Source: Vibrio comitans
GTDB lineage: Bacteria; Pseudomonadota; Gammaproteobacteria; Enterobacterales; Vibrionaceae
Direction: 5' to 3'
Length of the DNA stretch: 64,000 nucleotides
NCBI GenBank assembly: GCA_024346835.1
Contig: AP024866.1
Location: forward strand, 1,488,001-1,552,000
Positions 52,793-57,256 of this stretch are shown piece by piece. Below the pieces are notes generated by a model. That model was not told the origin of the DNA. It saw only the letters and a program-made list of their open reading frames with translations, and ran no database searches. The position numbers and the translations under genes are program-made. Every line of letters starts with the position of its first letter. Positions within the stretch are counted from its first letter, which is position 1.

Positions 52793-53503
52793 TTAAGAAA
52801 GTAGCTCTTCGACCAATTTAGGCACTTCAATACCTGCGGGACCATAACGCTTTTCTTCAAATTCACTCTGTACAGCACTCGGCTCTAGATTGATTTCTAT
52901 GGTGTGTGCACCGTGCATTTTCGCATCATGCACAAAGCCTGCAGCCGGGTACACCACTCCAGATGTGCCGATAGAAACAAAAAGATCAGCCTCTTCGATA
53001 GCAGCATAGATTCTATCCATCTGCAGTGGCATCTCCCCAAACCACACAATATGGGGCCTCATTTGATGTGGGATCTGACAGCAGTGGCACAGATCACCAT
53101 CATTAAGATCCGTCAGTTGCTCAACCACTTGACCCGACTCGCTACAGCGAGCCTTCAGTAGTTCACCATGCATATGCACTATGTTATTGGTGCCGCCTCT
53201 TTCGTGAAGATTGTCTATGTTCTGCGTTACTACAGTAACATTTCCATCTAGCATCTCTTCCAAGCGCCCCAAGGCTTTATGCGCAGCATTTGGCTGGATA
53301 GATTCAGACAGAAGCTTCTGCCGACGCATATTGTAAAAGGAGTGCACCAACACCGGGTCTTTAGCAAAGCCTTCTGGCGTGGCAACATCCTCAATACGAT
53401 GATTCTCCCAAAGCCCATCTTGTGCTCTGAACGTTTGTATTCCCGATTCCGCTGAGATACCCGCGCCGGTTAACACAACAATGTTTTTGTATGGAAAGTT
53501 CAT
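52793..53503 (-). CDS. cobB: NAD-dependent protein deacylase CobB (sirtuin)
   Basis: A 236-residue class III sirtuin. [20 protein letters not shown] (NAD binding), catalytic His in IVHMHGEL, the TQNID motif, four zinc cysteines (ARCSES and LCHCCQ) and [13 protein letters not shown] are present. The FYNMRRQ segment has the Tyr and Arg that let class III sirtuins remove succinyl groups as well as acetyl. It controls acetyl-CoA synthetase and other proteins. The start at 53503 follows GAGG; an ATG 18 bases upstream is less likely. Confidence 0.95.
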
Positions 53504-53697
53504 ATTGAGGCCTCGAAGCAATTGCTAATGAATTGTTAACAAAGATTAACATTCATACAAGGGGTAAATAAAGAGACTGAGATCTCATCTTTAAGTGAAA
53601 TGTTTTACATCTAATTCAATGTTTTTTCACAAAAAATTTCGTGAAACACATTCTCTGCACTAAACTTTTCAAGGAATCAAACGGACAAGAGAGAATC

Positions 53698-56043
53698 ATG
53701 CGTTCAAAACTATTCTTCCTTCCCCTGCTCCTAGCTTTATTTTCTTTTGGTGCTTCTGCCAACTGGGAATATGACTTAGCAGATGAACCGAATATTGATA
53801 AGGTCTCTATCAGCATCGCGACTGAAATCGACAAATTACCTGAGCCGCTATTCATGACGCGAGAAGATCGCGACAAGGTTAATCAGTTGATGGAAGCGGT
53901 GATTACAGAGCAACTTAAACATGCCGATCAATTCGCTGAGCAGATAAAAGCCTACAACAAAGATGGTAGCGATGAAAACTGGCAAACCGCCGAACGCTCA
54001 TGGTTGACTCTAAGTAGTCTTAGCAAAAGTAAAGCTGACTTGCTTGCCCTAGCGAGTAGCTCAACCAAAGACCTAATCGCCGGATTTGGACCCTCCGGTG
54101 TTATCCAGTTTAAGCAAGAATGGTATATAACCCGTCTCAATGGCGAGTTCTTGGTGCATCTGCAAATCCGTAGTTTTAAAGCTCTGATCAAAGACATCTT
54201 TATCTCACCGATCCCAGTAATGTGGGCAGCGCTTAAGGTCTTGTTCATTTACTTTGCTTTGACTTGGTGGCTTGCTAATAGCAAACGCTTCATTGAAGCC
54301 TTCAAAAATGCTCAAGTTCAGCATGGTACTCGCCCTCCTCTTTGGATGCGCTTAATTTGGTACATAAGCCGCGCAAATAGAGCAATAGCCGTACTTATCG
54401 CAATTACACTCTCTTTGCGAGTGCTATCTTCGATACCGAGCCTAAGTCAACTTATCGTCCTTGAAATCTTCACTTGGTGGATATTGGGTGGCTCAATCGC
54501 AATTAGCTTTATCCTCGAATTTGCTTATCGCAACAGTCGTAGTTCCAGCAAAGAAATTGTCGCGCTACGTTTGTCGACGATACGTTGGTACGTTTGGAGT
54601 TTCATCTTTGTTGGCGTGATTTTGCAAATCTCACAGCGAATGGTCGGCAAAGGCACCATTTATTATTGGATATCTAGCCTCGTATTCTTCTGGTTTGTGT
54701 TGATTACGATTAATGTATTGCGTAAATGGCGCCCTATCGTGTTTCGTCGCATCGCTAAGATGCCAGATAAACCACTTTGGATTGTATGGGCTGAAAAGAA
54801 CGAAAAGACCTTTTTACTCAACATCATCGCGACCGTATTAGGTATTGTCTGGATCTTTACCGCTACGTGCCAAGGCATGATTGTGGCAAAACTGTCCAAT
54901 TTCACCTTCTTTAGCCAAGGTTTAGCCTACCTATTCAAAATAGAAGTAGCCAAGCAGAATGAAAGTGAAATGCAGTCACAAAATTTTGTTCGAATTAAGG
55001 GAGACGAAACCTTCAAATACGTCACTCCTGGTCATGAAGACAGCACCTTAATTGACTACGCGACAGAAGAGTTCAAGCAAGTCTCACGATACGTACTGTC
55101 AAACAACCCTGCAGTTTGCGTTGTATCCGGCGAGCGCGGTATAGGCACTACTACCTTCCTTAAGCAGTTACTTCACAAGGTCAAGAATGCCACGCCAATC
55201 TATCTCAACTGCCCTTATGCAGGTTACTCAGCACTCATTGAGGAGTTTGCCGAGCAGCTAGGCCTTGAAAGAGAAGCTGGCGAGATCCAAATCCTTAACC
55301 ACCTTCGAAAAAGTAATGAAAGCTACCTCATTGCACTCGATAACGGTCAACGTTTGGTCAAACCAATGGTGGGTGGACTCAACGGCTTGATTCGGTTTAC
55401 TAACTTATTGCGCCGTTCTAAGAAAAACCACCGCGCTGTACTGGCCATCGAAAAAGCAAGCTGGCGTTTTGTTGATAGAGCTCGTGGAGAAAGGCTACTG
55501 TTCGATTGGGTCTCTTTCTTACCAAACTGGAATGAAGCGCAGGTAGCTCAGTTGCTTGAGTCTCGCATTAATCAATCAGATGAGTATCGACTCTCATTTG
55601 AAGGTCTTGTGGTACCAAAACAGTGGGATCACGGCAATATCAGCGAAGAAGACCGTGCTCGAAATGGCTTCTACCGCATCCTTTGGCATTATGCAGATGG
55701 TAACCCAACAGTAGCGCTTAGATTCTTCAGGCTATCTCTACGCCGTAATAAAAATGACGACAGTATCGTAGTCAGGTTATTTAGAGCACCAGAGTCAGAA
55801 GAGCTCGAAAAAATGCCTAAGCCAATGTTGGCTGTACTTCGCTCTATCGTGCAATTGGAAGTGGCAAACCAAGAGGAACTGTCTGAATGTACACAGCTTA
55901 GCCACTCTGAAGTGCTCGGTACACTGCGTTACTTCCAAAGTCGTGGCTACATCGAGTGGAGTGACGATAAGGCTAAAATCTCAGATCACTGGTATCGCCA
56001 TGTCACCAATGTCCTTCACCGTCAGCATTTACTGGTAAAATAA
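53698..56043 (+). CDS. Membrane-anchored AAA/STAND-like protein with degenerate P-loop
   Basis: A 781-residue protein. A signal peptide (FFLPLLLALFSFGASA) is followed by a helical periplasmic region (about 20-170), six membrane helices (about 180-410), and a cytosolic ATPase-like region (about 430-690) ending in a winged-helix part. The P-loop at residues 478-485 reads GERGIGTT, with Thr where the Walker Lys belongs, and the Walker B-like segment is LIALDNGQ (542-551) with Asn where Asp or Glu is expected. ATP hydrolysis is therefore doubtful, nucleotide binding possible. Its stop is one base before the MscS gene. The ATG at 53698 is chosen over one at 53641 because GAGAGA precedes it and it starts the signal peptide. 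Confidence 0.78.
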   Translation: MRSKLFFLPLLLALFSFGASANWEYDLADEPNIDKVSISIATEIDKLPEPLFMTREDRDKVNQLMEAVITEQLKHADQFAEQIKAYNKDGSDENWQTAERSWLTLSSLSKSKADLLALASSSTKDLIAGFGPSGVIQFKQEWYITRLNGEFLVHLQIRSFKALIKDIFISPIPVMWAALKVLFIYFALTWWLANSKRFIEAFKNAQVQHGTRPPLWMRLIWYISRANRAIAVLIAITLSLRVLSSIPSLSQLIVLEIFTWWILGGSIAISFILEFAYRNSRSSSKEIVALRLSTIRWYVWSFIFVGVILQISQRMVGKGTIYYWISSLVFFWFVLITINVLRKWRPIVFRRIAKMPDKPLWIVWAEKNEKTFLLNIIATVLGIVWIFTATCQGMIVAKLSNFTFFSQGLAYLFKIEVAKQNESEMQSQNFVRIKGDETFKYVTPGHEDSTLIDYATEEFKQVSRYVLSNNPAVCVVSGERGIGTTTFLKQLLHKVKNATPIYLNCPYAGYSALIEEFAEQLGLEREAGEIQILNHLRKSNESYLIALDNGQRLVKPMVGGLNGLIRFTNLLRRSKKNHRAVLAIEKASWRFVDRARGERLLFDWVSFLPNWNEAQVAQLLESRINQSDEYRLSFEGLVVPKQWDHGNISEEDRARNGFYRILWHYADGNPTVALRFFRLSLRRNKNDDSIVVRLFRAPESEELEKMPKPMLAVLRSIVQLEVANQEELSECTQLSHSEVLGTLRYFQSRGYIEWSDDKAKISDHWYRHVTNVLHRQHLLVK

Positions 56044-56044
56044 T

Positions 56045-56929
56045 ATGCAAAGATTTTTATACCTTGTTCTATTAACTACATTCAGTAGTCTCTCGTACGC
56101 GATGACAGAAGTACCTGACGTTTCGGCTATTCAAGATTTTGCCAGTTTAGTTCGCTGGGGGGGCGTTCTATTTTCTGTGCTTATCATTGCCTGTACTTGG
56201 TTACTACTCAGATTCATTGATTCCCTTGTAGAAAGTGTTAGTGCGCAATTTGTACAGTACCGAATGATTTTGCAAAAAGCGCAATCCTTCCTGCAGTTCT
56301 TCATCTACATTACTGCTGGTATTGTGGTGTTCATGATCAGCTTCAGAATCAACGACCATATATTGGCCCTAATTGGTGGTACTCTTGCCGTTTCGGTGGG
56401 CTTTGCATTAAAGGATCTCGCCGCTTCATTCATCGCAGGCTTAACAGTAATGATAGACCGCCCCTTCCAAGTAGGTGACCGCGTCACGTTCGAAGGCAAC
56501 TACGGAGACATTATTACCATCGGATTGCGCTCAGTTCGCATGCGTACCCTGAATGATGACATCATTACGATTCCTAATAACAAATTCCTTAATGAAGTCA
56601 CCGTCAGTGGCAACTATGGTGCGTTAGATATGCAAGTGGTCATCCCCTTCTTTATCGGAATGGATCAAGACATCGATCTGGCAAGAAACCTAATTCAAGA
56701 AGCCGCATCATCGAGTCGTTACATACATCTTCCCAAACCTGTTGTTGTTTTGGTCAAACAAACCATCACCGAGAACTATTTAGCAATACAATTGACCTGT
56801 AAGGCCTATGTTGTCGATACCGGATATGAGAAACTGTTCGAAACTGATATCACGCTGCGTGTAATGAAAGAGTTCAAGAAAAACGGCATTACTCCACCGC
56901 GCATTGCTGTGAGTTCACAACCAGCTTAA
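56045..56929 (+). CDS. MscS-family mechanosensitive channel
   Basis: A 294-residue inner-membrane protein. A possible cleaved leader (MQRFLYLVLLTTFSSLSYA) is followed by three helices; the pore helix region reads LALIGGTLAVSVGFALKDLAASFIAG, and the beta-domain follows as DRPFQVGDRVTFEGNYGDI with PNNKFLNEVT. This is the MscS core with an enlarged N-terminus. It begins one base after the AAA-like gene, so the two proteins are probably made in fixed ratio and may form one complex. Confidence 0.9.
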   Translation: MQRFLYLVLLTTFSSLSYAMTEVPDVSAIQDFASLVRWGGVLFSVLIIACTWLLLRFIDSLVESVSAQFVQYRMILQKAQSFLQFFIYITAGIVVFMISFRINDHILALIGGTLAVSVGFALKDLAASFIAGLTVMIDRPFQVGDRVTFEGNYGDIITIGLRSVRMRTLNDDIITIPNNKFLNEVTVSGNYGALDMQVVIPFFIGMDQDIDLARNLIQEAASSSRYIHLPKPVVVLVKQTITENYLAIQLTCKAYVVDTGYEKLFETDITLRVMKEFKKNGITPPRIAVSSQPA

Positions 56930-56966
56930 CCGTCGATAATTCGTCGAATACTAAACAGAGAATACA

Positions 56967-57227
56967 ATGGCAAGAACGATTCAATACGTATACAACAAAC
57001 AACACAAAGAACTACTGTTCTCTTATCAAGAGCACCGCAATATTCATGAAGCAGTTGCCGAAGCTGAGGGGATCGACCTAAAAGAGTTCCTTAAGATGGA
57101 ACAACAAATCGAAGCGGTATCTGATACAAAAGCCGTTCGTGATTATCGTGACAACTACTTCAGAAAGTTGGGCTTTGGCAAAATTACGCTAAAACCAAAA
57201 GAGAATAAGCCGATTGGCAAAAAATAA
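56967..57227 (+). CDS. Hypothetical 86-residue cytosolic protein of the AAA-MscS unit
   Basis: A soluble, charged protein (start MARTIQYVYNKQHKELLFSY, end KENKPIGKK) with a predicted helical centre and basic C-terminus. No family is recognised. It lies 37 bases after the channel gene in the same direction, and a strong terminator follows, so it is the last gene of a three-gene operon. AACAGAGA precedes the ATG. Confidence 0.75.
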   Translation: MARTIQYVYNKQHKELLFSYQEHRNIHEAVAEAEGIDLKEFLKMEQQIEAVSDTKAVRDYRDNYFRKLGFGKITLKPKENKPIGKK

Positions 57228-57231
57228 CACT

Positions 57232-57256
57232 AGGGGCCTGATGGCCCCTTTTTTAT
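57232..57256 (+). terminator. Terminator of the AAA-MscS unit
   Basis: AGGGGCC/GGCCCCT stem of 7 bp with loop TGAT and six T, five bases after the stop at 57227. Confidence 0.94.

What the first reader, a model, noticed from the sequence alone, without database searches (positions are those of the whole stretch)
53698..57227. Operon of a membrane AAA-like protein lacking the Walker lysine, an MscS channel and a small protein
The first protein combines a signal peptide, periplasmic helical domain, six helices and a cytosolic ATPase-like domain with P-loop GERGIGTT (no Lys) and Walker B-like LDNG, plus a winged helix. One base later an MscS-type channel starts, then an 86-residue soluble protein and a terminator. 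A nucleotide- or ligand-sensing module coupled to a channel suggests gating by an internal signal (osmotic, redox or phage-induced). I know of no described system with this exact composition; this is the best candidate for an undescribed system in the window.
Basis: partly seen in the sequence, partly recalled or inferred. Interest (0 to 1): 0.75.

Follow-up and report, generated by a model that had tools for sequence, protein, structure and literature searches.

The report
Membrane channel with disarmed ATPase partner
A bacterial gene for an MscS-type membrane channel sits one base behind a gene for an ATPase-like protein that lacks two residues normally needed to burn ATP; every relative of that protein scored above our cut-off has such a channel gene beside it, and the protein is predicted to act as a sensing switch that would likely open or shut the channel.

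Summary
Gene A (53698-56043) has a signal-like segment, six hydrophobic segments, a Cdc6/Orc1-like AAA+ domain (model level) and a winged helix; its P-loop is GERGIGTT, its Walker B LDN. Gene B (56045-56929) is an MscS channel. Gene C (DUF2960) is an independent neighbour: present in 96 of 99 genus genomes, beside B in 12 of 58.
A and B are inseparable. In the genus both occur in the same 59 of 99 genomes, always adjacent. Outside it, 20 of 20 loci with an A homologue above about 50 bits have MscS adjacent; 0 of 22 weaker AAA_22 hits examined do. Partnered channels form one clade (100/100) holding one channel without a partner.
Distant relatives keep the Walker lysine; on the tree it changed about six times (five forced). 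In the Vibrio/Shewanella clade the other P-loop residues are invariant (115 of 115) while lysine is never present. One class of partners shows no recognisable P-loop, yet still sits beside MscS.
Best reading: a dedicated AAA+ regulatory partner of an MscS channel, here probably binding a ligand without hydrolysing ATP. Docking, ligand and gating are untested.

The parts
53698..56043 (+). gene A: 781-aa membrane protein with Cdc6/Orc1-like AAA+ domain and winged helix, catalytically degenerate
53698..53754 (+). signal-like hydrophobic N-terminus of A (residues 1-19)
   Evidence: hydropathy; helix 2-19 in the model
54193..54894 (+). membrane region of A: six hydrophobic segments, residues 166-399
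   Evidence: 166-193, 226-250, 251-273, 287-305, 318-343, 369-399
55129..55152 (+). P-loop of A, GERGIGTT (residues 478-485), Lys replaced by Thr484
55324..55344 (+). Walker B of A up to LDN (residues 543-549), Asn in place of the catalytic Glu
55795..56031 (+). C-terminal winged-helix region of A (about residues 700-778)
   Evidence: secondary structure; structural matches reach residue 778-781; MarR_2 weak in relatives
56045..56929 (+). gene B: 294-aa MscS-family channel, dedicated partner
   Evidence: PF00924 61 bits and PF21082 25.5 bits, both over cut-off; best solved relative MscK 7uw5 E 3e-16; partner clade

Best explanation
Genes A and B form a conserved two-gene module in which a protein predicted to be a membrane-anchored, Cdc6/Orc1-like AAA+ protein likely docks on its own dedicated MscS-family channel and would control the channel's opening according to a bound nucleotide or other cytosolic ligand. 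Shown by calls: the pairing and its depth, the single clade of partnered channels, the fold class of the ATPase domain (at model level) and the repeated loss of catalytic residues. Inferred: A meets the cytosolic part of the MscS heptamer; partners without any hydrophobic segment suggest that AAA domain plus winged helix is the essential part and the membrane domain a tether. Inferred: in the Vibrio/Shewanella branch, which lacks both the Walker A Lys and the Walker B Glu, A binds its ligand without hydrolysing it and works as a passive switch rather than a motor, since the rest of the P-loop is invariant. Untested: the ligand, the direction of gating and the physiological signal.
For: Genus: A in 59 of 99 genomes, B orthologue in the same 59, all adjacent on one strand. 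Outside the genus: 17 of 17 A homologues above about 50 bits have MscS adjacent, plus 3 of 3 plasmid-borne ones; 0 of 22 weaker AAA_22 hits examined do. Converse: beyond the profile's own 8 members, 8 of the next 9 MscS hits have an A-core homologue directly upstream and 0 of 13 lower ones do. 29 partnered channels plus L149 form one clade, 100/100, and the main groups recur in the ATPase tree. P-loop invariant except for the lysine position in 115 of 115. Partners without hydrophobic segments: 7 of 7 of the L023-L027, L096, L097 group.
Against: No complex, ligand or gating was shown. The P-loop-less class shows that nucleotide binding cannot be needed everywhere, which favours a scaffold role at least there. 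L149 shows that one channel of the clade does without an adjacent partner. 40 of 99 genus genomes lack both genes, and above the cut-off only 7 of 368 other class genomes have A, so the module is dispensable. pTM of the full model is 0.49, so the placement of domains is unknown.
Confidence: 0.55

Rival explanations
1. A is a structural or assembly subunit of the channel: its ATPase fold survives only as a scaffold, and nothing is sensed.
For: Repeated loss of Lys and, in one class, of the whole P-loop while the pairing stays.
Against: In the window's own clade the P-loop residues other than Lys, and Walker B D548 N549, are identical in 115 of 115 sequences, more than the mean conservation of the region (0.83) would give; 89 of 238 family rows keep Lys.
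Confidence: 0.25
2. A is a membrane-bound DNA-binding regulator (winged helix) that reports the state of the channel to the genome.
For: C-terminal winged-helix region and Cdc6/Orc1/TnsC-like fold, families that bind DNA; weak MarR_2 and HTH_24 matches in relatives.
Against: Winged helices are also a standard structural part of the Cdc6 and STAND class (recalled); the adjacent gene kept across all lineages is only the channel; DNA binding was not tested.
Confidence: 0.08
3. The pair is a defence or abortive module in which a STAND-like sensor opens a pore upon phage infection.
Against: In the genus it sits at a conserved place between a Sir2-like gene and DUF2960; no match in phage records; no repeat-type sensor domain was recognised by Pfam.
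Confidence: 0.07
4. A and B are neighbours without functional link.
For: Operon neighbours can be stable within one genus.
Against: Linkage holds down to 14-23% overall identity, in Gamma- and Alphaproteobacteria and at different places, with co-presence or co-absence in 99 of 99 genus genomes and a control of 0 of 22.
Confidence: 0.03

Closest known systems
MscS family, in particular MscK and MscM of E. coli
   Same: B is an MscS channel; its best solved relative is MscK (7uw5, E 3e-16). MscK and MscM also carry long N-terminal helical and membrane extensions.
Orc1/Cdc6 initiators and TnsC (AAA+)
   Different: A is predicted to sit in the membrane, is linked to a channel gene, and lacks Walker A Lys and Walker B Glu.
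STAND NTPases / NLR resistosomes, Avs
   Different: No Pfam STAND model reaches its cut-off; no repeat sensor domain recognised; a separate channel protein instead of a built-in effector.
Nucleotide-controlled channels: bCNG (MscS with a cyclic-nucleotide domain) and KtrAB (RCK ring under a potassium channel) (both recalled)
   Same: A channel put under control of a cytosolic ligand-binding module, which is how the pair is proposed to work.
   Different: There the sensor is a cNMP-binding or RCK domain; here it is a separate AAA+ type protein, often catalytically dead.

Membership tests
MscS channel family (gene B) | MscS beta-domain and C-terminal domain over curated cut-offs | tested here: met
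   PF00924 61.0 against 20.2 bits; PF21082 25.5 against 21 bits
MscS channel family (gene B) | tension-gated conductance | not testable with these tools
   needs patch clamp
Orc1/Cdc6-type AAA+ (gene A) | AAA+ core plus winged-helix fold | tested here: met
Orc1/Cdc6-type AAA+ (gene A) | Walker A GxxxxGK[ST] | tested here: not met
   GERGIGTT; Lys in 0 of 115 of the clade; Lys kept in 89 of 238 family rows
Orc1/Cdc6-type AAA+ (gene A) | Walker B acidic pair (D-E) | tested here: not met
   D548 N549 in 115 of 115; E in 17 of 238 family rows
Orc1/Cdc6-type AAA+ (gene A) | origin or DNA binding | not tested
   no binding data
STAND NTPase (gene A) | match to a STAND/NACHT/NB-ARC model over its cut-off | tested here: not met
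   nSTAND5 15.9 against 34, nSTAND3 14.8 against 27.2 bits; relatives below cut-off too
STAND NTPase (gene A) | C-terminal repeat or superstructure sensor domain | tested here: inconclusive
   A ends with the winged helix; no repeat family listed by Pfam
MscK/MscM | extension and pore in one polypeptide | tested here: not met
   two genes, stop at 56041-56043 and new ATG at 56045
MscK/MscM | pore domain groups with MscK/MscM | tested here: not met
   B in the partner clade (100/100); E. coli MscK and MscM in the other part of the tree
MscK/MscM | shared fold of the N-terminal membrane part | tested here: inconclusive
cyclic-nucleotide-gated MscS (bCNG) | cNMP-binding domain on the channel | tested here: not met
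   no such Pfam match in B
known anti-phage systems | clear match to a PADLOC model | tested here: not met
   only PDC-S27 E 5e-4 (17 bits) and MkoB E 0.02 for A; none for B and C

The most novel reading that the evidence does not exclude
A whole clade of MscS channels is governed by AAA+ partner proteins, a channel type not found described here, and evolution has disarmed the partner's ATPase again and again (Lys state changed at least five times on the tree; no P-loop left in one class), turning a putative AAA+ motor into a passive ligand-sensing gatekeeper of a mechanosensitive pore.
Probability: 0.5. Interest if true: 0.86.

Novelty: new variant of a known kind. Interest (0 to 1): 0.72.

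Why it matters
MscS channels are usually thought of as self-sufficient tension valves (recalled). A clade that is tied to an AAA+ partner would mean that such valves can be put under cytosolic control by a protein related to replication initiators. Because the same partnership exists with intact, Lys-less and P-loop-less partners, it is a natural series for asking what a nucleotide-binding fold still does once hydrolysis is gone. It would also give a role to an 'AAA family ATPase / ATP-binding protein' found in 59 of 99 sampled species of the window's genus.

Tried and rejected
Gene C (DUF2960) as a third member: rejected. Sequencing slip as cause of the missing lysine: rejected. Substitution rates: NG86 dS is saturated for A in five of five comparisons and for B in three of five; only B against L050 and L051 gave values (dN/dS about 0.02), so no rate claim is made for A. 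Homology of A's membrane part to MscK: a weak lead only (MscK/MscM-type Pfam domains were not listed). A profile search of solved structures with A gave only AAA-type matches, best a Cdc6 at E 4e-5. Genome-contig scan: 2 loci, both paired. Phages: no match; plasmids: 3 records, all under 60% identity. Neighbours outside Pseudomonadota (for example the Polyangiaceae protein P0170) could not be seen. Papers: 10 searches; seven gave nothing, three listed 11 papers, none about this pair by title and start of abstract; I saw listings only and opened no paper. The library lacks most subscription journals.

Rows dropped or faulty: one search held a one-base row (L017:1-1) entered by mistake, which emptied its list of invariant columns; that alignment was not used again. 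The second MscS tree left out other_L006 and other_L008 (very long branches) and six near-duplicate genus partners. The ATPase tree used 85 of 238 rows. Of the matches only the 30 that came with loci were examined, and the 8 best of these were rows of the profile itself. Of the weak hits only the 22 with loci were examined. Of 10 A/B-less stretches fetched, 5 held both flanking genes.

Full report
WHAT IS THERE. Gene A runs 53698-56043 (781 aa), gene B 56045-56929 (294 aa), gene C 56967-57227 (86 aa). A stem followed by a T run lies at 57232-57249. A passes the Pfam AAA_22 cut-off, B passes two MscS models, C passes DUF2960. Hydropathy of A shows an N-terminal signal-like segment and six further segments between residues 166 and 399.

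DEGENERATE ACTIVE SITE. A's P-loop is GERGIGTT and its Walker B LIALDN. In 115 distinct sequences of the Vibrio/Shewanella clade, G478 E479 R480 G481 G483 T485 and D548 N549 are identical in all, while position 484, the place of the lysine, is T 76, A 19, S 13, V 7 and never K. The loop is strictly kept but the lysine is excluded, and the catalytic glutamate is asparagine. I infer loss of hydrolysis with possible retention of ligand binding; neither was measured.

THE PAIR IS INSEPARABLE. In 99 sampled genomes of the genus A is found in 59 and the B orthologue in the same 59; in all 59 they share contig and strand and are adjacent, with 4-165 bases between alignment edges. In four of these A is broken in the assembly (G513, G601, G565, G521; contamination 4-7%), which may be assembly error. 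Outside the genus, order, class and phylum searches and one scan of named genomes gave 17 loci with an A homologue above about 50 bits (the weakest 49.3, 55); all 17 have an MscS gene adjacent on the same strand. Three plasmid records, Novosphingobium (2) and Caulobacter (1), add 3 of 3. As an internal control, the 22 weaker AAA_22 hits that came with loci (21-37 bits) have no MscS within the stretch held, up to 1.5 kb on each side. The module is uncommon at this depth: 7 of 368 other class genomes pass about 50 bits, and 40 of 99 genus genomes lack both genes.

THE CONVERSE. A profile of partner MscS proteins over 369 class genomes shows a clear break: 8 hits above 350 bits, 9 at 138-203 bits, the rest at 119 or less. 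The 8 best are rows of the profile itself, so their partners prove nothing new; that no other channel scores above 204 bits is the informative part. Of the 9 next, 8 have directly upstream a protein homologous to the A core; the exception is L149. Of the 13 lower ones that came with loci, 0 do. In the MscS tree, all 29 partnered channels plus L149 form one clade with 100/100 support against 22 other MscS proteins, including E. coli MscS, MscK and MscM (a smaller tree gave 96/93 for 27 partners against 11 others). The main groups of the channel tree recur in the ATPase tree. Six channel residues (R73, Y153, D171, N190, G192, R272; numbering of B) are present in 29 of 29 partnered channels and in 1-4 of 25 others; they are candidates for a partner-specific surface, or simply marks of common descent.

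THE LYSINE WAS LOST REPEATEDLY. Over 238 family rows, some of them duplicates, the position is K 89, T 92, A 23, S 13, V 9, R 4, M 3, L 3, I 2; the Walker B acid is N in 198, E in 17, D in 17. Thalassotalea/Colwellia relatives and the relatives of about 1000 residues keep the lysine, as do the three plasmid copies. On an ATPase tree built without that column, Lys/no-Lys needs 6 changes, 5 of them forced by starred branches (quick method, several long branches, so the count is approximate, and it cannot tell gain from loss). The 8 partners of the 138-203-bit channels (307-416 aa) go further: the A-core profile finds them with E 1e-6 to 8e-17, but none of them aligns over the P-loop, and the Walker B Asp is replaced in the 4 that align there.

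ARCHITECTURES. Partners come as membrane proteins of 670-1143 residues, or without any clear hydrophobic segment: 7 of 7 of the group L023-L027, L096 and L097 (392-428 aa, one of 791 aa) have none, and the P-loop-less ones have none or one. The constant part is therefore AAA core plus winged helix plus MscS; the membrane and periplasmic part is an accessory, plausibly a tether.

GENE C. DUF2960 is in 96 of 99 genus genomes, which includes 37 of the 40 without A-B. It lies within 500 bp of B in 12 of 58 genomes and 8.4-16.9 kb away in the other 46 (one genome has it on another contig). In 5 of 10 A/B-less stretches fetched, both flanks are present: the Sir2-like gene of the window's 52793-53521 (named from my reading of its sequence) and DUF2960 lie 3.7-6.4 kb apart with no A-B match between them. 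DUF2960 is a flank gene.

MECHANISM. I commit to this: A docks on the cytosolic side of the B heptamer and biases its gate according to a bound ligand, most simply a nucleotide. In lineages with an intact site this could be an ATP/ADP cycle; in the window's lineage it would be occupancy alone. The strongest objection is the P-loop-less class, which shows that nucleotide binding is not needed everywhere; there the partner may be a scaffold or sense something else.

NOVELTY. Each half belongs to a known family. Ten paper searches listed nothing that describes the pair; only listings were seen. Public names for A are 'AAA family ATPase', 'ATP-binding protein' and once 'cdc6-related protein'. I rate it a new variant of a known kind, an MscS channel with an AAA+ partner; if control by A is shown it would be a new channel type.

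Noticed in passing
P0214 (protein): A 1671-residue metagenomic protein joins a Na+/H+ exchanger domain (PF00999) to a distant AAA core of this family (25% over 35%; P-loop GEPGSGRT): the same module fused to another ion-flux protein.
   Followed up: partly
L165:3236-7658 (Caulobacter plasmid pNIBR24541): An A homologue with intact GERGAGKT is followed by two MscS-annotated genes in tandem, the second only distantly similar to the partner clade (26 bits).
   Followed up: no
L149 (G385:C24:15242-15988 with flanks): The only channel examined within the partner clade that has no recognisable A homologue beside it; the partner may be lost or lie elsewhere.
   Followed up: partly
window 56967-57227: DUF2960, of unknown function, is near-universal in the genus (96 of 99) and found in none of 14 control genomes; one paper search on its name gave nothing.
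   Followed up: partly
G513:C29, G601:C30, G565:C35, G521:C2: Gene A is broken in four genus assemblies (contamination 4-7%) while B is whole in three of them; decay or assembly error cannot be told apart here.
   Followed up: no
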